IMG/VR virus record: IMGVR_UViG_3300031857_000156
Span: 1-64,000 of that record
Length of the DNA stretch: 64,000 bases
From: a virus
Strand: one strand, 5' to 3'
The notes under the pieces were generated by a model. That model did not search any database. It was given only the letters and a program-made list of their open reading frames with translations, and had not been told where the DNA came from. This document shows, piece after piece, positions 171 to 49,408 of the stretch (position 1 is the stretch's first letter; the number at the start of each line of letters is the position of its first letter). Position numbers and translations under genes: made by a program.

Positions 171-2728
171 TCAGGAGCTGGGGTTTCCGTTGGCGTTTTA
201 ACAGGCGGCGGAGTATAAGGCTCGATAATTGGGGCTGGAGCCGGCGGTTTAATTACAGGCTCGTTTTCAGGAGCAGGCACTTCTTCCGGCGGAATTACAG
301 GTTCAGAGGGAGCGGGCACTAAATCTGGCTTTGGCTCATTTTCCGGTGCTGGTACATCTTGCGGCAAAATCACAGGCTCGGCAGGAGCCGGTGTTGGCGC
401 GGGTGCTGGAGCGGGTGCTGGAGCGGGTGCTGGAGCAGGCGCGGGCAAGCCAGCGGTGGGTGAAGAAACTATTTTTTGAACATCTTGCGAATATCTATTT
501 AATCTTGCAGTTTCAGCATCGGATTGGTTTGGAGTAAGTATGGGATTTACAACTGTTTCTCCCGACGAAGTTACAGTTAAGGCAATCCCTGCGGAAGCAA
601 GAAGCTGCTGCACGTATGGATTAGACGCAACAACCTGAGCAAATCTCGGATCGTTTGCTGCAAATCTAGCAATCTGTTTTGCTACTTCTGGGGCCGCCCG
701 AGCGGCAGTTTGTGTTGCTGCGCTTGCAGCAAGCGGTAACGCCAAAGCAGGAAGCGCGGCGGTTTGTTCGCCAGAGGTTACATCCTCAAATACTTGACGT
801 GCCATGGCTTCGCCAATGGCTCCAGCTTTTTCCTCATTAGAAAGAGGGCGATCTCCGACGGCAGCCTGAGCTATATTTAATTCATTCTGATAATTTGGGT
901 TTGCTTTTAATTCAGAATCAATTAGTTTATTTGAAACGGTTGCTTGTTTAGAAACATCAGAATTTATTTGAGAGACAGCATTTGCTGCGTTAGCAGCGTC
1001 TTCTGGTGTTGCACCAGCACTAATTGCGGATTTGTAAGTTGAACTCCAGAGATTTTCTTCCCCAGTTTTTGTTTCAAAGCTAGAATTTGCTGCATCAACA
1101 ATTGTTTTTGCAACTTCGGGGGTTTTTAATTTATCTGCCGCATCTAAAGTTCTTTGTAAACCGTTTGCAGCTGATATAGCACCCTGGATGTTTCCAGAAG
1201 AAATTGCCTCTACAACTCGAGCCGCAGCAGCTGCTGTTTGAAGATCCTGGCTTTTTGTTAATTGGCCTCCTATTTGAGCAACAGTTGTCCAATCATTTTT
1301 TGATACGGCATTTACCAAGTTAGCGGCTCTTGCAATATCTGAAATGTTAATGTTTCCAGAAACATTTATGCTTCCAACGCTATTAGAAATTGTTGGGTTA
1401 TTTATTAAAGAACTTACTACGCCAATTGGATCGTTGTTTTTAACTGCGTTAGCTACGTTTAAAGCGGTAGCTGTATTTGTGAACCCACCCACGCCGGCCA
1501 GTGACGCAAGGCCTCCCAAAACGTTTCCTTGTTTAATAGCTAAGGCCGCGCTTGCAACCTGAGCAAAAGGTTGAACACCTGGTATAAAAGAAGCAGCAGC
1601 AAGCGCAGTTGATATTAATTGTCCTTGGCCCGTGTCCTCGCCGTAAGTACTAAATTGTACTTTTCCAGTTATAGGGTTTACAAACATATTGTAACCCGTC
1701 ATGCCTGGACCGCTGTAAGTTTTACCGATGTCAATTCGATACGGCTCAGTCGCTTGTGTCCAACCCAAAGTTTGTGTTGGCGTTTTAACTATTTTTCCAA
1801 CTGACACATCCGGTAAATAGTATTGAGTAAAAAAGTTTCCTTCTTCGTCTCGAATTTGGCGACTTTGAACTTGTTTTAACTCTTCAGGAGTTAATTCACG
1901 ACTAATGCTGCTTCCACCTTCATCACCATAAGGGTTGTACGCCGACACCATGTATTTTGGTGTTGTTGAACCTTCCTCAAATCTTTGGGACACCGAGCCT
2001 TCACGCAGAATATCTTCAAGTTTTAATTGATCAAGATTAGTAATACCTTTGCCAATTAAACCGCGGGCCATATCTAAAACAACTTGTTCTCCGGCATTTG
2101 GATTTCGACCAAGCAATTTTGTTGCTTCATCATATCCAAAACCTACACTTTCTCCCGTTGTTCCAAAAATTCCTCCACGCAACTCTCCAAGGTTTTGGAC
2201 AATTTGTTGCGCCAATGGCAAAATTACAGTCTTGTCGTATATGTTTCCAGATCTGTCTACTGTTGCCTGTTCTGCAACATTCAATCCGGAATACTGCGGT
2301 GTCATGTTTTTTGCAATAAAATATGACGCTTGTTGCTGCGGTGTTAACCCTGTGGCTTTTTCAATGTCGCCAGCAGATACTTTAAATTGAGAAATTGCAT
2401 TTGCAATTGCTGCAGGATCATTTTGATTTTGTTCAAGAAAATTTTTAATCTGCAGGTTTGTTAAAGGCGCTATTGGAGCCGGAGCTGGAGTTGGGGTCGG
2501 GGCTACGGTCGAAGGCAACCCAGAATAGGTCGGCGTGATGTTTGAGGTTTGAAAATAAGAAGCTTGTTGGGCAGGTGTGTAGCCCGTGGCCGCAGCAATA
2601 TCAGACGCGGAAATGCCAAACTGCGCCGCAGCGTTTGAAATAGCTTGCGGGTCAGCTAGGTTTTGGGCGACAAAGTTGCTAATGTCAGCAGCTGAAAATT
2701 GCCCTTGATTTCCGAAAGTTTGGCTCAT
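1..2728 (-). CDS. Large virion protein, N-terminal 909 residues (continues past window start)
   Basis: Open from the ATG at 2728 to the window edge. Residues about 8-70 and 85-145 are two related helical repeats, both carrying a TGxTPxQxASYF signature and a YSGL end. Then come an Ala-rich helical region with GxxGGLASL segments and a C-terminal tract of Pro-Ala dipeptides interrupted by acidic PENEP motifs. It reads in frame into the piece at 63249-64000 when the ends are joined. It lies between the tail stabilisation genes and the internal virion proteins, so an ejected or tail-associated structural role is likely (inference). No enzymatic motif was recognised. Confidence 0.75.
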   Translation of the reverse strand, partial: MSQTFGNQGQFSAADISNFVAQNLADPQAISNAAAQFGISASDIAAATGYTPAQQASYFQTSNITPTYSGLPSTVAPTPTPAPAPIAPLTNLQIKNFLEQNQNDPAAIANAISQFKVSAGDIEKATGLTPQQQASYFIAKNMTPQYSGLNVAEQATVDRSGNIYDKTVILPLAQQIVQNLGELRGGIFGTTGESVGFGYDEATKLLGRNPNAGEQVVLDMARGLIGKGITNLDQLKLEDILREGSVSQRFEEGSTTPKYMVSAYNPYGDEGGSSISRELTPEELKQVQSRQIRDEEGNFFTQYYLPDVSVGKIVKTPTQTLGWTQATEPYRIDIGKTYSGPGMTGYNMFVNPITGKVQFSTYGEDTGQGQLISTALAAASFIPGVQPFAQVASAALAIKQGNVLGGLASLAGVGGFTNTATALNVANAVKNNDPIGVVSSLINNPTISNSVGSINVSGNINISDIARAANLVNAVSKNDWTTVAQIGGQLTKSQDLQTAAAAARVVEAISSGNIQGAISAANGLQRTLDAADKLKTPEVAKTIVDAANSSFETKTGEENLWSSTYKSAISAGATPEDAANAANAVSQINSDVSKQATVSNKLIDSELKANPNYQNELNIAQAAVGDRPLSNEEKAGAIGEAMARQVFEDVTSGEQTAALPALALPLAASAATQTAARAAPEVAKQIARFAANDPRFAQVVASNPYVQQLLASAGIALTVTSSGETVVNPILTPNQSDAETARLNRYSQDVQKIVSSPTAGLPAPAPAPAPAPAPAPAPTPAPAEPVILPQDVPAPENEPKPDLVPAPSEPVIPPEEVPAPENEPVIKPPAPAPIIEPYTPPPVKTPTETPAPEIRPFAPAPAPAPAPAPAPAPAPAPAPAPAPAPAPAPAPAPAPAPAPAPAPAPAPAP

Positions 2729-3011: not shown

Positions 3012-5185
3012 TACGGGCGCTCGTCGCCGTACTCGGCAGTAATTAAAACACGGCCCATTTCAAAGTTGCCGTTGACCGTATTAGAAGAAAACTTAATTTT
3101 TGATTCGCGGTTTTCGATTCGCAAATCAACTTTACCGTCATCTGGGCCAAACGTAAATATTGTTGAGTTAGACTGCTCGCCCCTAGCAAACTTTTTGCCA
3201 AGAATTTGCAAAGTCATGTCCCCGGTTTGCAAAAAGTCCGGTTCAATACGGCGAAGGTGAAGTCGCCGATTCACTCCTTTTGGTGCGTCTTGCGACGGGT
3301 CCCCGCCGACCCAGCTTATGTCGCAGGTGGTAATAGAAGCTGGTATAGCAAGCACGCCGTCATCGCTTTGGCTATTAACGCTGTATTCTTGCTGCCATAT
3401 TGTGTAACCATTTCTAACTGGATACACCGCGCTTCCTACAGCGGGCGGCGAAACAAACGCTGCGGTTGCCGTGATTAAGGTTGCGTTAACTGCTAAGATG
3501 TACTCCGCAGTGGCAACTGTGTAATAGTCATCTTGCGGGTTTGTATTAAACTGGAAGTTAGTGCCCGGCGGCAGATTTGATGTTGCGTCGCCATTTAAAT
3601 AAAACTGATCGTTGCCCGGGGCTGGCTCTCCGCCAGGGGTTGCGATAATCGTGATTGGCTGGCCGAAGGTAGCAAAGTACTCCCAGCCACACCAAATCGG
3701 TGTCGGAAACACCTCAGTCGTGTAACCACACGACCTACGCGCTCCGTCAGCCTGACCTGCATCGTACCAGAGCTTATCTTTAACGTTGTAGATGATCGCG
3801 TCCGTGCATTCTGTTGCCGTGCCGCGGGGATAAAAAAACCAAATCTCATTATATCTGGGCACTTTTGTAGCCCAAACTTTCTGGCGTTGCTCAAAGTTCA
3901 GATTGTCGTAGAACCAGTTTATGTTTTTATCGTTGGCTAACACCTGAACCGAGCCGTTGTATAGATAAAAACGGTCAACGCCAGCCCAGTAATAAAGACC
4001 GTCCATTTCTACGACGGCATTTGATGATAGTATTGAGGTTTGGCTGGAAATGATGTCGTACTTCCAATACTGCTGTGGATTGCCAGTAAAAGATACACGA
4101 ATAAGGCTGTCCGTTGCCCAAAACAATCCTGACGGAGAGTTAGTTCCGCCGCGCACCGGCATGCCCTTTACTATCTTACCCGCGGTCATGTTGACCCGGT
4201 TAGCCAGCGGACCATTCCAATCGTTAAAGTTTTGGTCCGCGTAGGTTGCTTCGACGTGGTTATTTGCTATAAAACCATTTGATCCGTAAACAAAGATAAA
4301 CGGATACAGCACGCACACGCCGCCGTCTACTTCGATTGGAGCATACGTTGGGTTTGTTCCATAGCTATCTGACAGCGCGGAAAAACTCCAAGTGTTTCCG
4401 GGTCCTGGTAAAATGTTTCCTGCGTACACCGGCGTTGGATTACCGTTGTCAATGTTTTCTAAATTTAATCCTGGATGAGCAAGGACCTGAAGCGCTCCGC
4501 CTTGCGGATTATATTGCATGTCAAATTGCCACAGTATTCTGTCGCTGCCAATTGGAAACGTGCTTGTAGCAATCCAAGCTGTTGACGGCGCCGATATTGG
4601 CATGGCCGGGCTGACTGTAACTGTAGTATAAATGTTAGCCGGAACAGCTACAATATTGTCACTATTCTCGGCATCAATTATGTCGCCGGCTTCGCTTAAC
4701 AAATACTGATTGGCAACATTGGCGTTTGAGGTAACTGCGGTTACCGTGTAAACTTGAGCGCCTGGAGTTTGACTAAAAACAATTTTTGTGCCAACTGGAA
4801 ACTTTGACACAAGATTACCCAGCACAGAAAAACTGCTGGCGTTTGAAAACATAATTGTAAAAGGGGAGTAGCCTACTTTAATTGTTGCCGGGTAAGGCCC
4901 GCTTCCCTGACCAAGTGTAGTGCCAGTAATAAAAGCGTCAACTGTGCTTTGATTACCCACAAACATGTAATTTAAACTGTTGTAGGCATTAATAATCATG
5001 CCTCGAGGAATGCCGCCCGGGTCGCGAAACATCTGCCGATAGCCGCCCATCTTCTTAGGCACGCCGCGCTGAAACCGAGTCCAAACACCGTCGGTAAACT
5101 CTCGCGACTCAAACGTAGTTCCGTCGCGTTTAATGCCAGGCTTTACACCCAGCGTGTAAATCAGCGCAAGGTTTTGGTCAGCCAT
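3011..5185 (-). CDS. Tail/virion stabilisation protein (P22 gp10-like)
   Basis: 724 residues. The N-terminus has the signature RDGTxFESREFTDGVWTRFQRG followed by KKMGGYRQ, typical of podoviral stabilisation proteins that seal the portal channel. The rest is beta-rich with WxGVD- and RYNEIWFFYPRG-type strand repeats suggesting a propeller. It is longer than P22 gp10, so extra domains are likely. It sits directly downstream of the adaptor genes. The family assignment is by motif recognition and moderately secure; no catalytic motif is seen. Confidence 0.7.
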   Translation of the reverse strand: MADQNLALIYTLGVKPGIKRDGTTFESREFTDGVWTRFQRGVPKKMGGYRQMFRDPGGIPRGMIINAYNSLNYMFVGNQSTVDAFITGTTLGQGSGPYPATIKVGYSPFTIMFSNASSFSVLGNLVSKFPVGTKIVFSQTPGAQVYTVTAVTSNANVANQYLLSEAGDIIDAENSDNIVAVPANIYTTVTVSPAMPISAPSTAWIATSTFPIGSDRILWQFDMQYNPQGGALQVLAHPGLNLENIDNGNPTPVYAGNILPGPGNTWSFSALSDSYGTNPTYAPIEVDGGVCVLYPFIFVYGSNGFIANNHVEATYADQNFNDWNGPLANRVNMTAGKIVKGMPVRGGTNSPSGLFWATDSLIRVSFTGNPQQYWKYDIISSQTSILSSNAVVEMDGLYYWAGVDRFYLYNGSVQVLANDKNINWFYDNLNFEQRQKVWATKVPRYNEIWFFYPRGTATECTDAIIYNVKDKLWYDAGQADGARRSCGYTTEVFPTPIWCGWEYFATFGQPITIIATPGGEPAPGNDQFYLNGDATSNLPPGTNFQFNTNPQDDYYTVATAEYILAVNATLITATAAFVSPPAVGSAVYPVRNGYTIWQQEYSVNSQSDDGVLAIPASITTCDISWVGGDPSQDAPKGVNRRLHLRRIEPDFLQTGDMTLQILGKKFARGEQSNSTIFTFGPDDGKVDLRIENRESKIKFSSNTVNGNFEMGRVLITAEYGDERP

Positions 5186-5187
5186 TT

Positions 5188-6456
5188 TTAAAACGTGCCG
5201 CCGGGAATTAAGCCTGCATTAAATGTTGCGGTGGTTGAGACTTGGGGCGACCCTGGGTTTGTGTTGTTAAAGCGCATCATGTCAGCGCCGTTGGTTGCGA
5301 CACGCATGTCGTTCGTGCCAGCCAAATACAAGCCGGTGTCGGTGTTGCTGGTAAACGTGAAGGACGGAGCAGACACGGAGCCGTTATCGGCGTAGTAAAC
5401 GCCGGTCGTGGATTGTGTCAGGATGTACAGGTCCACCCCATCGCTTAACAGGATGGCCGTGACGCCGTTTGCAAAGGACACCGGAGCTCCGAGGCCACCA
5501 TCAATTTGGAAAGTGATTGAATACCCGCTTTGTCCTGTGGCGTTATTGACCACATAAATCTGCGTAATGGCCGGCAGAGTAACGGCTAGGTTTTGAGTTC
5601 GCGTTCCCGATGTCGCAACATAAGTCTGAATGGTCGGCGCAAAAGTAATAAGACTTAATGTGTTTCCAACAATATTATCTACGTCGTAAACGGCGGAACT
5701 GTACGTAACAACAGACTGACTTGATAAACCTATTGTAAAAAAGTGCCCTGTGTTTTTATTAAGGCAAACAAGCGCAGAATCGCCGGGATAAAAAGTAACT
5801 GTTGAAGTGCCGTTAATTGTGTTGGCACCTTGAGATGACACTGATAATGATCCAGTGCCTCCGTTGCGGATCATTATGTACCAGCCTGTGCTTACAGATG
5901 CCGCGGTTGGGAGGGTAAACACACCGGCGCCGCCAGTCCAAACATAAGAATAAGCACGAGTAGCTTCATTGAGTGTGGGGGCTACGGCCGTTTCAATAGT
6001 TATTGTGGAGGTTTGCAATAACCCGTTTAGGTTAATTAGCCCGTTGCCGACTAACGACGCAGCATCGGCAGACGACGTGCCCGTTCCGTAAGTAAAGTTA
6101 CGATAAACGCCATCGGTTGTTGAATTGTTGGTTAGATAAAAATACCGAGCTTCGCCGGCCGGGATTGATACGGACGGTGAACCGGATTGCACTTGTACCG
6201 TAAAAGTGTTGCTACCAACGTTTCTAAACAGGATGTCTGTACCGACAGACTGCTGATTTCCTGGGGGCAGCGTGATGGTTAATCCGCCCGTAGTGGCGTT
6301 GCAATCCATGATCCGGGCCACTGCCACGGTCGTTCCGCCGGAGACCGTGTAGTCGGGCCAAGATAGCTCTTGGTTGGTGCCAAATGTTAGGGCACGGTAA
6401 CTGACGTCTGTAGGCTGTACTACGTCGCCTGTGAATGGTGAAGTGTATGTAGTCAT
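5188..6456 (-). CDS. Virion structural protein, fibre-like
   Basis: 422 residues, rich in Thr, Ser, Gly and Asn with alternating beta-strand patterning. The C-terminus (NTDTGLYLAGTNDMRVATNG) is a motif common in phage fibre and neck-fibre proteins, before a final PGGTF. It is 1 bp from the stabilisation protein and its start overlaps the end of the adaptor gene. It is probably a neck or tail fibre; the exact position in the virion is not visible. Confidence 0.65.
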   Translation of the reverse strand: MTTYTSPFTGDVVQPTDVSYRALTFGTNQELSWPDYTVSGGTTVAVARIMDCNATTGGLTITLPPGNQQSVGTDILFRNVGSNTFTVQVQSGSPSVSIPAGEARYFYLTNNSTTDGVYRNFTYGTGTSSADAASLVGNGLINLNGLLQTSTITIETAVAPTLNEATRAYSYVWTGGAGVFTLPTAASVSTGWYIMIRNGGTGSLSVSSQGANTINGTSTVTFYPGDSALVCLNKNTGHFFTIGLSSQSVVTYSSAVYDVDNIVGNTLSLITFAPTIQTYVATSGTRTQNLAVTLPAITQIYVVNNATGQSGYSITFQIDGGLGAPVSFANGVTAILLSDGVDLYILTQSTTGVYYADNGSVSAPSFTFTSNTDTGLYLAGTNDMRVATNGADMMRFNNTNPGSPQVSTTATFNAGLIPGGTF

Positions 6457-31179: not shown

Positions 31180-32619
31180 CTACTGGGCGTACGGGTTGTA
31201 CCGCTGCTTGCTTTTGTCATCCGCGTAGTCGTAGTCGCGCACCGGCAGGGGGTCCAGCTGTATCCAGCCCGAGTCGCGCAGCACACGCAAGGCCTGGGAT
31301 AAGCTGTCCACGTAGTCATCGTGCCCACCAGACTCCGGGAACGCACACACCTGGCGCAGGAAACGCTTTGCCCAGTCAGCAAACTCCCCATGCTTTTTCA
31401 CATCCTCCGGCACGTAGACCTTGCCCTTCGCTATAAGCGGAGCCACGATGTTGATACGCTGCACCTTGTCCGCTCGGCCAGGGTTGTACGCCCTGACCGG
31501 CACGCCGGCACCTTGCAGCTCCTGGATTAGCGAGATACCTGCCGACTTATCCTCCATGAGGATTAGGTCTGCCTTTCTGCCTTTTGCAAAGGTGTTGTCC
31601 GCGCCGTACACGACCTCCTTAAAGTCGTTGATTACCTTCTTGCGCAGCTCGGGATATGACAGGTGCGCATCCCACGCATCCAGAAGGATGATGCACGTCC
31701 CCTTGTCCTGGTTCTCAAACACGCCCCAAACCTCGCAAGCCGTCGGGTCGTTGTGTGTCTTCTCACTCGTTGCCGGGTCGTATGAGGCGATCACATACTC
31801 CAGTGTCGGCGTCTCCTTTTTCATCGGCCACATCTTAAACCACTTGCGCTTCACAATGCCGGCGTCTTCTGGGTTTAGGATTTCACCATAGATCTCCTGT
31901 TTACCCAGGTCAGTGCCTTCGTAGGTCTCAAGCTGCTTGAAAAACGTCGCCGATAGGTTCTGCCTGTTGTCATAAGACGAGGCATTTACCATGTACACGT
32001 CGCCGCCGACCTTACCCTCGGCCAGATCGACAATTAACTCCTTTGGCTTGGGTGTGGTGGTTATGATCTGCTGCACCCGGGCTATGCCTTGGTGCTTTAA
32101 GCGCAGCGTAAACTGCACCTGGTCGTACGCATCGTCGATGTACTCAAACGCACAGAGCTCATCGAACCAGGCGCCATGGAACTGCTTACCTCGATACCGC
32201 TCTGGCTCGGATCCTGGTATGCCCTGGATGATAGACCCGTTGATTAACGTGATTTCAAAGAGCGACTTGTTGTAATCCTTGATCAACGAGTGCGGAATGA
32301 TGTTAAGTAACCCCGAGTCGCCCTCAAAACACGTCGCCCGAATGTCGTTTGACGTCGGCGCGGTCACTAACCAGCGTGTGTCGGGGTGTTTCCACGCCCG
32401 AATCCCAATCCAATGGCTCGCGGTGTGCGTTTTACCTGATCCCCGGCCGGCAAGCATGAGGAAGGTGTCATATTCGCTGTCCTCCGGCTCTCTTTGGTGT
32501 CCAAGCGCGCTTAATTCCCATCGAACCTGCCACAAAGCCGCGTCCAGCTGCGGTTTTGGCCAGTGTTTGTTGTTTTTTGCAAAATCCGCCAGGATTTTTT
32601 CTTGTTTTTTGCTCAACAT
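31180..32619 (-). CDS. terL: Terminase large subunit (TerL)
   Basis: 479 residues. The ATPase has Walker A GRGSGKT at 58-64 and Walker B with the catalytic Glu in HGAWFDELCAF (E154), then a coupling motif in ITTTPKP. The nuclease has acidic residues in ASYDPAT, LMEDKSAG and HDDYVDSLSQAL. It packages DNA into the prohead and cuts concatemers. The start overlaps the Hint gene stop (ATGTTGA). The small subunit candidate lies far away at 50.4 kb. Confidence 0.92.
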   Translation of the reverse strand: MLSKKQEKILADFAKNNKHWPKPQLDAALWQVRWELSALGHQREPEDSEYDTFLMLAGRGSGKTHTASHWIGIRAWKHPDTRWLVTAPTSNDIRATCFEGDSGLLNIIPHSLIKDYNKSLFEITLINGSIIQGIPGSEPERYRGKQFHGAWFDELCAFEYIDDAYDQVQFTLRLKHQGIARVQQIITTTPKPKELIVDLAEGKVGGDVYMVNASSYDNRQNLSATFFKQLETYEGTDLGKQEIYGEILNPEDAGIVKRKWFKMWPMKKETPTLEYVIASYDPATSEKTHNDPTACEVWGVFENQDKGTCIILLDAWDAHLSYPELRKKVINDFKEVVYGADNTFAKGRKADLILMEDKSAGISLIQELQGAGVPVRAYNPGRADKVQRINIVAPLIAKGKVYVPEDVKKHGEFADWAKRFLRQVCAFPESGGHDDYVDSLSQALRVLRDSGWIQLDPLPVRDYDYADDKSKQRYNPYAQ

Positions 32620-33575
32620 ACTGAGATAAATCCCTCACTTGCCAAGAATGGTTTGTCAACAATGACATGAACGCACTGTTTCGGATCAATTTTCTTGATT
32701 TTTTGTATGTACCTGCGCTTTAGGCGCCCGTTTTTGTCTTCCAGCCTGAATGTCAGTCTATAATTCGGCCCAATCTCAGGCGTGTACAGCATGGTCTTAC
32801 ACCCCAGCGACTCAACCAGCGCCTGGTAGCGCCTAACTGTCGGGTAGTGGGGCTCGTAAATCGCGTATTTCTTCTCGTGGTTGTCCCACACCACATAAAA
32901 GCACGCGTCTATCAGACCCTCCAGCAGCTCCTCCCGTTGCTCGGGCGAGCTCTCCACGTAACTAAACGGCAGAGTCGTTGGGATGTCTGCGCCGGCAAAC
33001 AAAAACGTGTCCTTGATCGATGGCCGGAACTCAAACTTAAAGCGGCCCACGTTAAACTGTTTCACCTTCATAAAAAACCCGTGCCCGCGGCACCGCTTTC
33101 TCACCCGCTCCAGATCCATCTTGCCTACCATGTTCCTGCCTGACGGCCGCAACGACCCCAGCCAGATACCCATCACATAGGGCGGCACCGGCAGATCCTT
33201 CCACGTGTACTGCAGCGGCTCGCACACTTGTATGGACCAAGTCTCTGGTTCTTTTTTAACCAGCTCGTCCATTGACAAGAGCTTGATCTTCGAGCGCAGT
33301 GGCTTAGAATACTTCTTGCCGCGGTTCTTAACCCACCGCGACAAGTTGTCTCTATACGTCTTATCTTGCAGCGGGAGCGCCATGTGAGAGTCGCCCTCTA
33401 GCCCCAGCCCATCATCAAACGACACCTGATAGCACGCGCTCGGTATGTACTGCTGCACCGATCTCACCGGCTGGGCGCAGCCCGCTTGGTCAAACACAAG
33501 ATCTCCAGGGCGCAAGTCGATTGCCCGCCGCCAGCCACTAAGCGTGGGTATTGGCGTTGTCGCTGCTAGTCCCAT
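32613..33575 (-). CDS. Free-standing intein-like Hint/LAGLIDADG protein
   Basis: 320 residues showing intein architecture without flanking exteins. Block A is at 2-30 (GLAATTPIPTLSGW to GDLVFD), block B at 58-66 with H64, LAGLIDADG-like motifs at about 134-146 (degenerate) and 217-226 (LLEGLIDACF), and block F at 301-316 (VHVIVDKPFLASEGF). The first catalytic Cys is replaced (MGLA) and the terminal His-Asn is missing (ISVC), so self-splicing should be dead. It overlaps terL by 7 bp. It may be a homing-endonuclease relic or a recruited regulator. Confidence 0.75.
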   Translation of the reverse strand: MGLAATTPIPTLSGWRRAIDLRPGDLVFDQAGCAQPVRSVQQYIPSACYQVSFDDGLGLEGDSHMALPLQDKTYRDNLSRWVKNRGKKYSKPLRSKIKLLSMDELVKKEPETWSIQVCEPLQYTWKDLPVPPYVMGIWLGSLRPSGRNMVGKMDLERVRKRCRGHGFFMKVKQFNVGRFKFEFRPSIKDTFLFAGADIPTTLPFSYVESSPEQREELLEGLIDACFYVVWDNHEKKYAIYEPHYPTVRRYQALVESLGCKTMLYTPEIGPNYRLTFRLEDKNGRLKRRYIQKIKKIDPKQCVHVIVDKPFLASEGFISVC

Positions 33576-33808: not shown

Positions 33809-34027
33809 GCTGTCAAGGGTTGCGGGGGTTGCGGGGGTCTAAACCAGGTCCCCCTCTCGGTTTATATTTTTTATTTTCAAAAAAAAAATAAAAGTGAAAT
33901 AGACCCCCGCAACCCCCGCAACCCTTGACAGCAAAAAAATTTTACCAACAAAATCAATAACTTACAAAAGTGCGGCATAGAGAAAAAAGGGCCTCAGACC
34001 CTTGACACGACCCCGGCAACCCTTGAC
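33809..34027. repeat. Inverted-repeat element, copy A
   Basis: A perfect 32-bp inverted repeat (33809-33840 and 33901-33932; arms rich in GGGGTTGCGGGGG) surrounds a 60-bp AT-rich spacer. A related arm follows at 33997-34027 with the text cccttgacacgaccccggc. The whole block recurs, inverted and diverged, at 41850-42067. It could act as origin structure, terminator hairpin, or recombination site. Confidence 0.85.
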
Positions 34028-34234: not shown

Positions 34235-34545
34235 GTTGCAGCGCACCAATTTGCTGCATTGCAGCACCCCCAGTTAGTGCTCACTAACTTTGTGCAGTGC
34301 AACAAGTAAGTGAGCACTAACTAACCTGTATGCGGCAGTGCAACACCCCCAGCGAGCGCACACTAACTTATATGCTGCAGTGCACCACCCCCAGTGAGCG
34401 CTCACTAACATATTGCAGCGCGGCAATTAGGTTAGTGAGCGCACACTAACATGCAGGCAGGCACGCGTCTTGCCTTAGCAAGAATCATGCCAAGCTGGCC
34501 ATGCAAGAATCGTGCCAGATTGCCGGCTAAGTTAGTGAGTGCTCG
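34235..34545. repeat. Iteron-like array of GTTAGTG/CACTAAC boxes
   Basis: Six sites end or start with CACTAAC/GTTAGTG (34272, 34307, 34351, 34392, 34430, 34531), several palindromic such as AGTGAGCGCTCACTAAC. They are interspersed with gcagtgcamcaccccc boxes. The region is free of genes. Such arrays bind initiators or repressors; which protein binds here is unknown. Two caagaatcrtgcca copies lie at 34479 and 34504. The segment 34081-34234 contains nothing else I can assign. Confidence 0.7.
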
Positions 34546-34611
34546 CGAGCGCGAGCTAGACATCTGGGCATAAAGTAACCACAACGACAGCAGGGAGAAT
34601 CCAGCAGGCAA

Positions 34612-34640
34612 AAACCACCCTGAAAAAACCAGTATATTGA
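34612..34640 (+). promoter_or_regulatory. Early promoter box 1
   Basis: A conserved box AACCACCCTGAAAAAACCAG, then a -10-like TATATT at 34633. The same layout recurs at 36123, 36539, 37703 and 38576. There is no TTGACA at -35, so the box itself may bind an activator. Confidence 0.6.
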
Positions 34641-34667
34641 GACCATTACATAACAGGAGATCTCACC

Positions 34668-34967
34668 ATGGCGGCATCCCCAGAATTTAAGCTTTACGAC
34701 GCAGCAGGCACCTATCAGGCAGCCTGCAAACAGCCTGAGCAGGCAGCAGCCCTTGTTTCTTTTTTAGGCGACGGCGCCACCATCCGCTACGGCCACACCA
34801 AAAAAGACATCGTGTGGACCGAGGGAGTGGACGGCGCAGCTTCCGACTCTTATGACCAAACAGCAAACAAGGTCGTTGACCGGCTGTTTGCGCGCAGCGT
34901 TGAGCGCCAACGTCAAAGGGATTTTGACCGATGGGGCGGCGAGCGCCGGCTGTATCCCTTAGATTGA
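34668..34967 (+). CDS. Early hypothetical protein
   Basis: 99 residues. FKLYDAAGTYQAACKQPEQAAALVSFLGDGATIRYGH is a small alpha/beta fold with no motif I recognise. The C-terminal third is Arg-rich (RQRQRDFDRWGGERR). It is the first gene rightward of the origin, behind promoter box 1 and with an aggag ribosome site. Hammerhead 1 begins 5 nt after its stop. Confidence 0.65.
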   Translation: MAASPEFKLYDAAGTYQAACKQPEQAAALVSFLGDGATIRYGHTKKDIVWTEGVDGAASDSYDQTANKVVDRLFARSVERQRQRDFDRWGGERRLYPLD

Positions 34968-34971
34968 CCCA

Positions 34972-35023
34972 GCATCACTGATGAGGCCTGAATGGCCGAA
35001 ACCCCGGCGACGGGGTCTGATGC
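34972..35023 (+). ncRNA. Hammerhead ribozyme 1 (type I)
   Basis: Stem I GCATCA (34972) with TGATGC (35018); core CTGATGA (34978-34984); stem II GGCC/GGCC with TGAAT loop; core GAAA (34998); stem III CCCCG/CGGGG with GCGA loop; A35001-U35016 pair and C35017 as cleavage site. Open-ended stem I defines type I. It sits between two genes; cutting would leave the next mRNA starting at 35018, 28 nt before its ATG. Confidence 0.9.
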
Positions 35024-35045
35024 AATCACAACAGGAGCACACACC

Positions 35046-35762
35046 ATGCATAAAACGTTACTCACCGTCGACACGAATGCCAAGACGGTTAAGGGTCAAA
35101 AATACGGGTTCATTACAGGCATTCTGTATATGGCGCCGTCGGATCTGTCGGGCCAGCAATTCTGCCCCATGGCCAAGCTGGCCGGCTGCGAGGCAGCTTG
35201 TTTAAATACAGCCGGCCGCGGCGCCATGTCGTCAGTGCAGCGGGCCCGTCTGTCGAAAGCCCGGTTTTTCATCCAGCAGCGCGACGATTTCATGGACGTG
35301 CTCGCTGCTGACGTAGCCCGGCTGCAGCGCCGCGCTGCCAAGCTTGGCATGACGCCGCTGGTCCGTCTCAACGGCACGTCTGACATTCGTTGGGAGTCGA
35401 TCCGCATGCGCGACGGCCGGACAATCTTCGAGGCATTTCCCGGCGTGCAGTTTTACGATTACACGAAGATTGCCAATCGACGCGACATTCCGGCCAATTA
35501 CGATCTAACGTTTTCATGGTCCGGCGTCGCAGCATTCGCCGAGTACGGCCGGCGCGCCATCGATGCAGGCATGCGCGTCGCCGTCGTATTCCAAGACCGT
35601 CGCAGCATCCCGGCGTCGTATCTTGGCATGCAGTGCGTCGATGGCGACGACAGCGACATTCGCCACCTTGATCCGCGCGGCGTCGTCGTAGCGCTGTATG
35701 CCAAGGGTAAAGCAAAACGCGACACGTCCGGCTTCGTGATCCCGATCAAGCTTGTGGCGTAA
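35046..35762 (+). CDS. GP88-like phage protein
   Basis: 238 residues from the ATG at 35046 behind acaggagcac. A longer in-frame reading from 34992 only translates the ribozyme. Features: TVKGQKYGFITGILYMAP, then a Cys pattern CPMAKLAGCEAACLNTAG, then FPGVQFYDYTKI and GVVVALYAKGKAKRD. This resembles the phage Gene product 88 domain, whose biochemical role is not established. The gene is bracketed by hammerheads 1 and 2. Confidence 0.75.
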   Translation: MHKTLLTVDTNAKTVKGQKYGFITGILYMAPSDLSGQQFCPMAKLAGCEAACLNTAGRGAMSSVQRARLSKARFFIQQRDDFMDVLAADVARLQRRAAKLGMTPLVRLNGTSDIRWESIRMRDGRTIFEAFPGVQFYDYTKIANRRDIPANYDLTFSWSGVAAFAEYGRRAIDAGMRVAVVFQDRRSIPASYLGMQCVDGDDSDIRHLDPRGVVVALYAKGKAKRDTSGFVIPIKLVA

Positions 35763-35766
35763 TCCA

Positions 35767-35818
35767 GCATCACTGACGAGGCCTCGATGGCCGAAACCCC
35801 GGAGACGGGGTCTGATGC
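35767..35818 (+). ncRNA. Hammerhead ribozyme 2 (type I)
   Basis: Same layout as hammerhead 1: stem I GCATCA/TGATGC, core CTGACGA (35773), stem II GGCC with TCGAT loop, GAAA (35793), stem III CCCCG/CGGGG with GAGA loop, cleavage after C35812. Loops differ from copy 1 while helices are kept. It lies 4 nt after the GP88-like stop and 22 nt before the next ATG. Confidence 0.9.
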
Positions 35819-35840
35819 AATCACAACAGGAGAAAACACC

Positions 35841-36065
35841 ATGGACGACAATTTAGGAATGGCCGGAAAATACAACGTCTACCGTTGCGAAGATAACGCC
35901 GGGTTTTATTTCGAGCACGAGCAGTACGGTGACGAGCGCTCTGTCCGGGTCAACATTGACCCAGCGACCAAGCAGGCCTTTGACTACGAGGGCATGTACG
36001 AGGTCCCCGCGACGTGTTTGGAGTGGCTCCGCGCCAACGGCGTGAACGTCTCAGACGTCGAATAA
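35841..36065 (+). CDS. Early hypothetical protein
   Basis: 74 residues from the ATG at 35841; the longer frame from 35787 lies in the ribozyme. Acidic, with YNVYRCEDNAGFYFEHEQYGDERSVRVNID beta strands and VPATCLEWLRANGV. The fold is unknown. It is flanked by hammerheads 2 and 3, so its message may be trimmed at both ends. Confidence 0.65.
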   Translation: MDDNLGMAGKYNVYRCEDNAGFYFEHEQYGDERSVRVNIDPATKQAFDYEGMYEVPATCLEWLRANGVNVSDVE

Positions 36066-36068
36066 TCA

Positions 36069-36121
36069 GCATCTCTGACGATGGGGTGATTCCCCGAAAC
36101 CCGCGAGAGCGGGTCAGATGC
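36069..36121 (+). ncRNA. Hammerhead ribozyme 3 (type I), slightly degenerate
   Basis: Stem I GCATCT/AGATGC, core CTGACGA (36075-36081), stem II GGGG/CCCC, GAAA (36096), stem III CCCGC/GCGGG with GAGA loop, cleavage after C36115. All three helices carry compensatory changes relative to copies 1 and 2. A single extra T at 36082 lies between the core and stem II and may lower activity. Confidence 0.8.
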
Positions 36122-36150
36122 AAAACCATCCTGAAAAAACCAGTACAATA
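36122..36150 (+). promoter_or_regulatory. Early promoter box 2
   Basis: AAACCATCCTGAAAAAACCAG with -10-like TACAAT at 36144. It begins right after hammerhead 3, so transcripts started here lack the ribozymes. Confidence 0.55.
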
Positions 36151-36177
36151 GCAACACCACAACACGGAGAAAACACC

Positions 36178-36342
36178 ATGAGCACACCACAAACCCCAAT
36201 CACTGTCAGCATGCTGTCCGAGTACATCGGCCAGCATTCGGCAGCGAGCTACTCAGCACTCGCGCTACTGGCTGAAATTCTGAACGGCGAGATCGATCTA
36301 GAGCAGATCCGCCTCGACGTACTCGCGGAGACACAGCCATGA
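36178..36342 (+). CDS. Small early protein
   Basis: 54 residues from the ATG at 36178 behind cacggagaaaa. Helical (VSMLSEYIGQHSAASYSALALLAEILNGEIDLEQIRLDVL). It overlaps the next gene as ATGA. No family recognised. Confidence 0.6.
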   Translation: MSTPQTPITVSMLSEYIGQHSAASYSALALLAEILNGEIDLEQIRLDVLAETQP

Positions 36343-36539
36343 ACATCGACACCATCCCGCAGCAAGTAATCCGCCACAGCAAAGGGCCCGAGGGCTGGGC
36401 CCGCGCCACCATGGGCCCGATCGACGGCCGGCACTGGGACGCCACCGATCGGCAGTGGATCCAGTGGCTGCAGGACCAGGGGCAGGACGTCGTCACGATC
36501 GGCGACACCATGTATCAGATCGTCACGCCGCGGGAATAA
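36339..36539 (+). CDS. Small early protein
   Basis: 66 residues, Trp- and Gln-rich (GWARATMGPIDGRHWDATDRQWIQWLQDQGQD). Translationally coupled to its neighbour through ATGA. Promoter box 3 begins at its stop codon. Function unknown. Confidence 0.6.
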   Translation: MNIDTIPQQVIRHSKGPEGWARATMGPIDGRHWDATDRQWIQWLQDQGQDVVTIGDTMYQIVTPRE

Positions 36540-36566
36540 AACCACCCTGAAAAAACCAGTATAATG
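36539..36566 (+). promoter_or_regulatory. Early promoter box 3
   Basis: AACCACCCTGAAAAAACCAG with the best -10, TATAAT at 36560. The copy drives the segment with a structured RNA or micro-ORF. Confidence 0.65.
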
Positions 36567-36576
36567 TAACGATCAC

Positions 36577-37412: not shown

Positions 37413-37703
37413 ATGACAACGACACAACAACAGCCCAAGGTTCAGATGCTGGGCATCAAGATCAAGGCCAAGATCAACCTTACCGCGGACGACTGGCAGC
37501 TGTACAGCGCCATGTCCGGCCGCGAGACGGCAGCCCGGCGCATGAACCGGGCCATTGAGCGCAAGCTGGCCAAGGGCGAGATCGGGTCCCTGCTGGACGT
37601 GCTGCAACCATACGCCAAGTGGGGGGCCATGGACAGCGAAAGCTACCACACGGTGTACGAGATCCTGCGCCGGCTGGGCCTGGACGACGACAAGTTTATT
37701 TAA
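37413..37703 (+). CDS. Early hypothetical protein
   Basis: 96 residues, basic in the middle (SGRETAARRMNRAIERKLAKGEIGSLLDVL) and helical. It may bind nucleic acid but no fold is recognised. A ggagcaac site precedes the ATG, and promoter box 4 starts within its stop codon. Confidence 0.6.
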   Translation: MTTTQQQPKVQMLGIKIKAKINLTADDWQLYSAMSGRETAARRMNRAIERKLAKGEIGSLLDVLQPYAKWGAMDSESYHTVYEILRRLGLDDDKFI

Positions 37704-37730
37704 AACCACCCTCAAAAAACCAGTAAGATA
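37703..37730 (+). promoter_or_regulatory. Early promoter box 4
   Basis: AACCACCCTCAAAAAACCAG with -10-like TAAGAT at 37724, upstream of the DUF932 gene. Identical to box 5 for about 30 bp. Confidence 0.55.
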
Positions 37731-37753
37731 CTAACCACAAAAGGAGCAACACC

Positions 37754-38574: not shown

Positions 38575-38604
38575 AAAAACCACCCTCAAAAAACCAGTAA
38601 GATA
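38575..38604 (+). promoter_or_regulatory. Early promoter box 5
   Basis: AACCACCCTCAAAAAACCAG with TAAGAT at 38598 in the gap after the DUF932-like gene. Confidence 0.55.
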
Positions 38605-38628
38605 CTAACCACAACAGGAGCACACACC

Positions 38629-40788: not shown

Positions 40789-40919
40789 AGATATTAGGTT
40801 TTTGCATGATGCTGTTTGGGTTCCTGCTAACCACGCAGGGGACATCGTGGAACGCGCTGATGTTGATGGCCGGCGGATGCGCACTAATTTATGGAGCATA
40901 CCGACTTGAAAAGAGATAG
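40785..40919 (+). CDS. Tiny two-helix membrane protein
   Basis: 44 residues with two hydrophobic segments (ILGFCMMLFGFLL and ALMLMAGGCALIYGAY) and a KR end. It overlaps the sigma factor start by 29 bp. Unknown. Confidence 0.5.
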   Translation: MKILGFCMMLFGFLLTTQGTSWNALMLMAGGCALIYGAYRLEKR

Positions 40920-41478
40920 GACAGCGCTGTCAGACTACATCCGGGTGCTGTACAGGCACCCGGTGCTGCCGGTGCAGGAAGAGGAAAGGCTGTCAGGCAT
41001 GATACAGGCCGGAGACAACGCAGCGCTGGATAAACTGGTGCGGCACAATCTCCGGTTTGTTATTTCCGTGGTCAAGGACATGCCGATTTGGCAGAATGGC
41101 TCGGTGCCTTTCGAGGACATTGTGGCCATCGGCAACGAGTCCCTGCTCAAGGCAGCCAGGAAGTGGGTGCCTCGTAATGGCGCGAGGTTTGCAACGTACG
41201 CTAAGCCATTCATTGTCAAGGGTATCAGGAGGACCCTTGATAATGAATGGTCAATGATCCGCGTGCCGGTAAACATCCTCGAAGAGATACGCCGCATGAA
41301 GTATCTCGAGCGGGTTTTATCGCAAGAGCTCAGACGCGAGCCAACGCAGGCCGAGCTTGCCAATCGAATGAAAGTGCACGAGAGCCGGATAGTCGAGCTG
41401 CAAAACTTACTGACTCTCGAGCCAGTATCGCTTGAGGCATACAATCAGGAGAAATTCCACGAGGAGAGCGAAGAATGA
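40891..41478 (+). CDS. Sigma-70-type RNA polymerase sigma factor lacking region 4
   Basis: 195 residues. Region 1.2 is at about 11-43 (YIRVLYRHPVLPVQEEERL), region 2.1 at 44-62 (LVRHNLRFVISVV), region 2.2 at 72-92 (PFEDIVAIGNESLLKAARKW), 2.3/2.4 at 96-119 (GARFATYAKPFIVKGIRRTL), and region 3 at 122-176 (RVPVNILEEIRRM, TQAELANRM). It ends in an acidic tail without region 4, so it could read only -10-type elements unless a partner supplies -35 contact. It probably redirects host RNA polymerase to phage promoters. Confidence 0.85.
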   Translation: MEHTDLKRDRTALSDYIRVLYRHPVLPVQEEERLSGMIQAGDNAALDKLVRHNLRFVISVVKDMPIWQNGSVPFEDIVAIGNESLLKAARKWVPRNGARFATYAKPFIVKGIRRTLDNEWSMIRVPVNILEEIRRMKYLERVLSQELRREPTQAELANRMKVHESRIVELQNLLTLEPVSLEAYNQEKFHEESEE

Positions 41479-41849: not shown

Positions 41850-42067
41850 TGTCAGGGGTTGCCGGGGTCGTGTCAGGGATATGGACACGAGTTTCCATAT
41901 ACCACGCCCTCTGCAACCCATTGATTTAATTGATGAAAAAATTTGCTGTCAAGGGTTGCGGGGGTAGCGGGGGTCTATTTCACTTTTATTTTTTATTTTT
42001 TAAAAAGAAAAATAAATTTAAGAGGGAAGTAGGTTTAGACCCCCGCAACCCCCGCAACCCTTGACAG
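41850..42067. repeat. Inverted-repeat element, copy B
   Basis: A 31-bp inverted repeat with one mismatch (41946-41976 and 42037-42067) and a 60-bp AT-rich spacer, the same spacer length as copy A. An outer arm at 41850-41879 matches the reverse complement of 33997-34027. It lies inverted relative to copy A, so the two frame 34028-41849. The whole 281-bp gap before the primase gene is this element plus the promoter-like motif. Confidence 0.85.
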
Positions 42068-49327: not shown

Positions 49328-49408
49328 GGGGTTGGAATAGTTTCGACGTGGGCCAAGGCCTAAGCGGCAACCTTGCGGACCTGGGTGCGATTCCCAGCAA
49401 CTCCACCA
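49328..49408 (+). ncRNA. Minimal tmRNA-like RNA (tRNA-like domain only)
   Basis: The 5' end GGGGTTG pairs with CAACTCC before ACCA, including the G3-U pair that marks alanine tRNA and tmRNA. The tmRNA signature TTTCGACG is at 49341-49348. The 3' part GGAC-CTGGG-TGCGATT-CCCAG-CAACTCC-ACCA has the same segment lengths as E. coli tmRNA. CAAGG/CCTTG (49354/49371) forms a P2-like stem. Only about 45 nt lies between the halves, so the tag-coding domain and pseudoknots are absent. It could be a decoy, a tRNA-Ala-like RNA or a degenerate gene. The rest of the 301-bp gap 49235-49535 has no other clear gene. Confidence 0.65.

What the first reader, a model, noticed from the sequence alone, without database searches (positions are those of the whole stretch)
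34972..36121. Three type I hammerhead ribozymes between consecutive phage early genes
Each of three intergenic gaps has CUGANGA, GAAA, a conserved cleavage C and three helices in the right order. Stem I, II and III all show compensatory changes in copy 3 and loop changes between copies 1 and 2, which is strong evidence of selected RNA structure. Hammerheads are known in phages and bacteria, but a tandem set that could cut a polycistronic early message into single-gene pieces, with 5'-OH and cyclic-phosphate ends, would be unusual. Copy 3 has one extra T at stem II.
Basis: partly seen in the sequence, partly recalled or inferred. Interest (0 to 1): 0.92.

Follow-up and report, generated by a model that had tools for sequence, protein, structure and literature searches.

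The report
Phage hammerhead ribozymes between accessory genes
Three small self-cutting RNAs sit between neighbouring genes of an uncultivated phage and very probably cut its long messages into single-gene pieces; the idea dates from 2011, but these belong to a large phage family that the Rfam models miss, and the family's strict gene spacing gives a detailed clue to what it does.

Summary
Window 34972-35023, 35767-35818 and 36069-36121 are three type I hammerhead ribozymes. A covariance model built only from other viral contigs finds exactly these three (E = 9e-19, 2e-17, 1e-13). Rfam 15 misses them at its gathering thresholds.

They belong to a compact phage hammerhead family (open 6-bp stem I bordered by A and AA, 4-bp stem II, UNNNU loop). 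I collected 503 distinct copies from 300 viral loci. The extra U of copy 3 is a widespread, specific variant rather than damage.

Placement is stereotyped. Adjacent copies share a strand in 203 of 203 pairs. In 418 of 473 cases the copy lies between a stop and a co-directional start. The leader from cut to start has a median of 26 nt (28, 28 and 62 here). In sister phages, gene-plus-ribozyme units are the insertions.

Best explanation: co-transcriptional self-cleavage turns read-through transcripts into single-gene mRNAs with short 5'-OH leaders and ribozyme-capped 3' ends. No cleavage was measured here.

Tandem prophage hammerheads and this same hypothesis were published in 2011 (PMC3088659). 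What appears new is the family, its placement, the U-insertion class and stem I sequences shared within a phage.

The parts
34972..35023 (+). Hammerhead 1, type I. Stem I 34972-34977/35018-35023, core CTGATGA 34978-34984, stem II GGCC/GGCC with loop TGAAT, GAAA, stem III 35001-35016, cleavage after C35017. Conserved A at 34971 and AA at 35024-35025.
   Evidence: 76.3 bits, E 9e-19
35767..35818 (+). Hammerhead 2, type I. Cleavage after C35812. Stem I identical to copy 1; loop II TCGAT; stem III loop GAGA.
   Evidence: 71.8 bits, E 2e-17
36069..36121 (+). Hammerhead 3, type I, with the extra U (36082) between core A9 and stem II. Cleavage after C36115. Differs from copies 1 and 2 by paired changes in all three stems.
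   Evidence: 58.3 bits, E 1e-13; the variant is widespread
34611..34649 (+). Promoter-like repeat AAAACCACCCTGAAAAAACCAGTATATTG in front of gene A (one of 5 copies)
   Evidence: function inferred from position
34668..34967 (+). Gene A, 99 aa, no family match; its stop ends 4 nt before stem I of hammerhead 1
35024..35045 (+). Leader of gp88 after the stem I arm; the 5'-OH leader from the predicted cut (35018-35045) is 28 nt and holds AGGAG
   Evidence: same leader in front of other genes
35046..35762 (+). Gene B, gp88 family (PF17338, phrog_1617), 238 aa. The longer frame from ATG 34992 starts inside the ribozyme and is not the likely start.
   Evidence: homologues start at the equivalent of 35046
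35841..36065 (+). Gene C, 74 aa, flanked by hammerheads 2 and 3. A small gene with a similar C-terminal motif is also hammerhead-flanked in L002 (resemblance by eye).
36122..36160 (+). Promoter-like repeat directly after hammerhead 3, in front of gene D
36178..36342 (+). Gene D, 54 aa; leader from the hammerhead 3 cut would be 62 nt and contains the promoter-like repeat
36538..36576 (+). Promoter-like repeat between gene E (36339-36539) and the next gene. At the equivalent gap the sister phage G004 carries hammerhead-X-hammerhead-ArdC before this repeat.

Best explanation
These are self-cleaving type I hammerheads that act as RNA-processing joints between accessory genes of a phage operon. RNA polymerase reads through from an upstream promoter. 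Each hammerhead folds as it is made and cuts after its C17. The upstream mRNA keeps the ribozyme's two hairpins and a 2',3'-cyclic phosphate as its 3' end. The downstream mRNA begins with a 5'-OH and a short leader (6-nt stem I arm, AA, ribosome-binding site) of about 26 nt. The result is single-gene mRNAs of the same form that a separate promoter would give. A gene plus a hammerhead can therefore be inserted into an operon without its own promoter or terminator and without burdening the next gene with a long structured leader. Shown by sequence: the ribozymes, their covariation, strand, placement, and gene-plus-hammerhead indels between sister phages. Inferred: cleavage activity here, co-transcriptional timing, the chemical ends, and the benefit.
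For: Held-out covariance model hits. In pattern hits not selected for stem I, 288 of 306 have a perfect 6-bp stem I. Covariation: 160 two-sided changes against 43 in shuffles, 100% of cells paired against 32-37% when slid. Of 503 copies, 203 of 203 adjacent pairs lie on one strand; 418 of 473 lie between a stop and a co-directional start (random positions 19%, antisense 6%); cut-to-start distance is 26 nt median, 23-33 quartiles; the upstream stop codon lies within the ribozyme sequence in 266 of 452. Sister phage comparison: window P-A-HH-gp88-HH-C-HH-P-D-E-P, G004 P-gp88-HH-P-D-E-HH-X-HH-ArdC-P. L002 gaps hold either hairpin plus promoter-like repeat or a hammerhead. Downstream proteins belong to no single family, which fits a generic role. 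A triple array of hammerheads from Agrobacterium cleaves in vitro and in E. coli (PMC3088659).
Against: No cleavage, transcript-end or expression data exist for this phage. The promoters are assigned from repeats and position only; a sigma-70 consensus scan did not find them. Only 3 of 79 loci with a relative of gp88 carry such ribozymes, so the device is dispensable. Predicted folding says the ribosome site is about as open before as after cutting (0.60 against 0.62), so cutting is not needed to expose it. In hammerhead 3 the following promoter-like repeat makes processing redundant for gene D.
Confidence: 0.75

Rival explanations
1. Insulator or attenuator: the ribozymes cut to destroy or limit read-through RNA, lowering expression of downstream genes or ending an operon, rather than to make useful mRNAs.
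For: Hammerhead 3 stands directly before a promoter-like repeat, and the same order occurs in L006, L217 and L218, where cutting separates two transcription units.
Against: Most copies are followed by a short leader and a start codon with no promoter repeat in between; hammerheads 1 and 2 have no promoter-like repeat behind them. A cutter meant only to destroy RNA would not need a tight 26-nt spacing to the next start.
Confidence: 0.12
2. DNA-level exchange sites: the repeated hammerhead sequences mainly serve as homology for swapping gene cassettes between phages, and RNA cleavage is secondary.
For: Gene-plus-hammerhead units are the indels between sister phages, and one G004 copy is identical to hammerhead 1. 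Stems assort independently within a locus, and stem I, the only stem that spans the whole motif, is shared within a phage, as would be needed for recombinants to keep working.
Against: Strong covariation in every stem and an intact catalytic core show selection on RNA. Strand and start-codon spacing are far stricter than homology needs.
Confidence: 0.06
3. Circular or spliced mRNAs: ends made by two neighbouring hammerheads are rejoined, giving circular single-gene RNAs or removal of the gene between them.
For: Because stem I is shared within a phage, the 3' arm of one copy can pair perfectly with the 5' arm of the next in 57% of adjacent pairs, against 7.4% between phages.
Against: Adjacent copies are no more compatible than distant copies in the same locus (57% against 52%; order shuffles p = 0.37). 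In the window copies 2 and 3 mismatch at pair 1.1. Perreault et al. looked for such products and found none.
Confidence: 0.05
4. Chance or decayed motifs without function.
For: Rfam gives no hit at gathering threshold.
Confidence: 0.01

Closest known systems
Clustered hammerheads of prophages (Perreault et al. 2011, PMC3088659)
   Same: Several hammerheads flanking single genes of phage origin, proposed to cut long phage transcripts into operon- or gene-length mRNAs; anti-restriction genes among the neighbours (ardA there, ArdC-like here).
   Different: Those were described in bacterial chromosomes and mix types I, II and III. Its placement is quantified here.
Rfam RF00163 Hammerhead_1 (type I)
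   Same: Same permutation, core and cleavage site.
   Different: Not reported for the window even at E up to 10; in relatives it reaches at most 26 bits against a threshold of 34. Here stem I is open and only 6 bp, with no outer stem beyond A1.7/A2.7.
Rfam RF03152 RAGATH-1-hammerhead
   Same: Best Rfam score for the window copies (20.9 bits); type I core with a short open stem I.
   Different: Far below its threshold of 56.3; it has a 25-nt 5' part that is absent from the window match and models only one stem II pair.

Membership tests
Hammerhead ribozyme, type I | Core CUGANGA...GAAA...UH with cleavage base H17 | tested here: met
   All three copies
Hammerhead ribozyme, type I | Three helices in the type I order, stems II and III capped, stem I open | tested here: met
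   Minimum-free-energy folds; covariation in all three helices
Hammerhead ribozyme, type I | G10.1-C11.1 directly next to A9 (no insertion) | tested here: inconclusive
   Met by copies 1 and 2. Copy 3 has U inserted there, as do at least 109 other stem-I-intact viral copies; A/C/G insertion is rare, 20 stretches in the whole collection and 8 with stem I among the 16 checked
Hammerhead ribozyme, type I | Stem I / loop II tertiary contact | tested here: inconclusive
   Conserved A and AA at the end of stem I and U...U in loop II fit the known A-U contact, but loop II U's were part of the search pattern and no 3D test was possible
Hammerhead ribozyme, type I | Self-cleavage giving 2',3'-cyclic phosphate and 5'-OH | not testable with these tools
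   Needs in vitro transcription
Rfam RF00163 Hammerhead_1 | Score at or above the gathering cut-off | tested here: not met
RAGATH-1 hammerhead | Score at or above the gathering cut-off | tested here: not met
   20.9 and 19.0 bits against 56.3
Clustered phage/prophage hammerheads | Several sense-strand hammerheads between consecutive phage genes | tested here: met
Clustered phage/prophage hammerheads | Demonstrated cleavage of the polycistronic RNA | not testable with these tools
   Shown for other arrays in PMC3088659

The most novel reading that the evidence does not exclude
Phages carry a virus-specific class of hammerheads that works as an exchangeable mRNA-end module: accessory genes travel as gene-plus-ribozyme cassettes without promoters, and each phage keeps one stem I sequence across its set, so that every processed mRNA carries the same 5' tag and the halves of different ribozymes are interchangeable (for recombination at DNA level or rejoining at RNA level).
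Probability: 0.25. Interest if true: 0.85.

Novelty: new variant of a known kind. Interest (0 to 1): 0.62.

Why it matters
The biological role of hammerheads in bacteria and phages is described as an open question (PMC6155905). This family gives a directly testable answer: fixed strand, fixed distance to the next start codon, stop codons built into the ribozyme, and matched sister phages with and without the unit. It also shows that a large phage ribozyme family goes unannotated by Rfam, and it offers a natural model of promoter-free insertion of single-gene mRNAs.

Tried and rejected
Rfam at gathering and at relaxed thresholds: no family reached. Chance origin: rejected. Link to gp88 as such: only 3 of 79 gp88 loci carry these ribozymes. 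Link to one function of the downstream gene: none; 112 downstream proteins match scattered families. Ribosome-site exposure by cutting: negligible predicted effect. Circularisation of the gene between two copies: stem I compatibility is not higher for neighbours than for distant copies. A common 5' tag also used by promoter-made transcripts: the excess of the tag outside scored copies came largely from hammerheads missed by my strict scan. Ribozymes in the nearest named phages (Mesorhizobium Lo5R7ANS, Limnohabitans DC31, Caulobacter GB2A, two Manatee Spring viruses): no convincing copy (the single GB2A pattern match did not reach the model). RNA-repair enzymes in the window: none among the 25 of 32 Pfam families shown. 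A first genome-contig scan with the GGCC stem II gave nothing.

Full report
What is there. The window is nearly all of an uncultivated 64,078-base viral contig. Its terminase is 53% identical to an uncultured tailed virus from Manatee Spring and 44% identical to those of Caulobacter phages such as GB2A. Structural genes lie on the minus strand up to about 34 kb; a block of small plus-strand genes starts at 34,668. In the first three gaps of that block lie the three hammerheads. Copies 1 and 2 differ at six positions within the motif, all in loops or at N7; copy 3 differs by paired changes in all stems and one extra U.

Is it real. The catalytic core is perfect in all three apart from the extra U of copy 3. 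The hammerhead is the predicted fold in each. The strongest test is a covariance model built from 31 viral loci unrelated to the window's close kin: 76, 72 and 58 bits, and no other hit in 64 kb. Rfam 15 reports nothing at gathering threshold here or in five other loci that together hold many copies.

The family. These are lower bounds, not a census, and copies are not phylogenetically independent. The pattern fixed CTGANGA, G10.1, C11.1, the outer U's of loop II, GAAAC and GTC; it did not fix stem I or the inner pairs of stems II and III. Without selection on stem I, 288 of 306 pattern hits had all six stem I pairs. On the 31-sequence alignment all 496 cells pair; 160 cells changed on both sides against 43 in shuffles (those 31 had been chosen for paired stems). 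Beyond pair 1.6 stem I stops: the next position is A opposite A in about 90%. The family is close to virus-confined: a narrower pattern gave 2 hits in 257 Gb of prokaryote genomes, while the same pattern is met at 110 sites in 98 of the viral loci held here.

With A, C or G at that place the whole collection holds 20 stretches; of the 16 checked, 8 keep stem I. The U is a specific, maintained variant. Its structural reason is unknown.

Placement. By my own ORF heuristic, 418 of 473 evaluable copies lie between the stop of one frame and the start of another on the same strand, against 19% of random positions and 6% on the opposite strand. The distance from cut to start has a median of 26 nt and quartiles of 23 and 33. 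All 203 adjacent pairs of copies share a strand. In 266 of 452 cases the upstream stop codon lies inside the ribozyme: in the stem I arm, in the UGA of the core, or in loop II. An example is gene X of L217, whose last codons and stop run to loop II. Type I order suits this, because the cut is at the 3' side: the whole ribozyme stays with the upstream message and only a 6-nt arm stays with the next. In near-complete relatives of 38-98 kb the copies cluster in one region on one strand, up to seven together.

Sister phages. The closest relative, contig G004, has promoter-like repeat, gp88, hammerhead, promoter-like repeat, D, E, hammerhead, X, hammerhead, ArdC-like gene, promoter-like repeat. The window has promoter-like repeat, A, hammerhead 1, gp88, hammerhead 2, C, hammerhead 3, promoter-like repeat, D, E, promoter-like repeat. 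The units gained or lost are gene plus hammerhead. Genes after a promoter-like repeat and genes after a hammerhead have near-identical leaders, ACAACAGGAG...ACCATG. In L002 each gap holds either a hairpin with a promoter-like repeat or a hammerhead. I read the hammerhead as a substitute for a terminator-promoter pair. The promoter role of the repeats is inferred from position only.

An unexplained pattern. Within a phage, copies share stem I much more than stems II and III: normalised excess identity 0.60, 0.12 and 0.31, with bootstrap intervals for the differences excluding zero. The sharing does not depend on adjacency, and stems are unlinked within a locus. Simple duplication would couple the stems. 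Either recombination among copies keeps stem I uniform, or the 5' end of all processed mRNAs is constrained. I cannot decide.

Known and new. Tandem phage hammerheads, their proposed role in cutting phage transcripts, and cleavage of a triple array in vitro and in E. coli were published in 2011 (PMC3088659). A 2017 review still calls the role an open question (PMC6155905), and a 2023 paper says the reason for the gene associations is unknown (PMC10085705). Literature was searched only in an open-access library; other reports may exist. New here, as far as I could find: the compact virus family missed by Rfam, its stereotyped stop-ribozyme-26 nt-start placement, the U-insertion class, and phage-specific stem I.

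What is not shown. No cleavage, transcript ends, expression or fitness was measured. The mechanism is inferred from sequence.

Noticed in passing
window 49328-49408 (+): Rfam tmRNA hit (53.3 bits) covering both ends of the model but lacking the whole mRNA-like middle; ARAGORN calls no tRNA or tmRNA there. A free-running fold did not favour the tRNA-like shape.
   Followed up: partly
window 34309-34452: Four copies of an AGTGAGCG(C/T)(T/A)CACTAAC repeat, one a perfect palindrome AGTGAGCGCTCACT, about 42 bases apart, just upstream of the plus-strand gene block; looks like an operator or origin array.
   Followed up: no
window 34611-34649, 36122-36160, 36538-36576, 37702-37740, 38576-38614: Five copies of a 39-nt repeat with AAAAAACCAGTA(T/C)AAT, each about 20-50 nt before a start codon; probable phage-specific promoter, perhaps for the phage's own sigma factor (40891-41478).
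   Followed up: partly
window 32613-33575 (-): 320-aa frame next to the terminase that starts like a Hint/intein domain (TTPIPTLSGWRRAIDLRPGDLV) and ends in Cys; no Pfam match; a relative lies in L002 at 4697-5656.
   Followed up: no
window about 33817-33924 and 41953-42060: A ~110-nt element that occurs at both ends of the early gene block and matches one L002 element, in both orientations for one copy; possibly a bidirectional terminator.
   Followed up: no
L217 2294-2500; L218 about 2111-2306 (-): Gene X is hammerhead-flanked in two sister phages and its C-terminus (..KW(V/I)S..DEA) and stop codon are encoded by the ribozyme itself.
   Followed up: partly
L361, L441, L260, L265, L243, L283 and others: Further hammerhead-like copies with altered cores (for example CCGA for CTGA, or H17 = A) beside canonical ones; possible natural core variants.
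   Followed up: no
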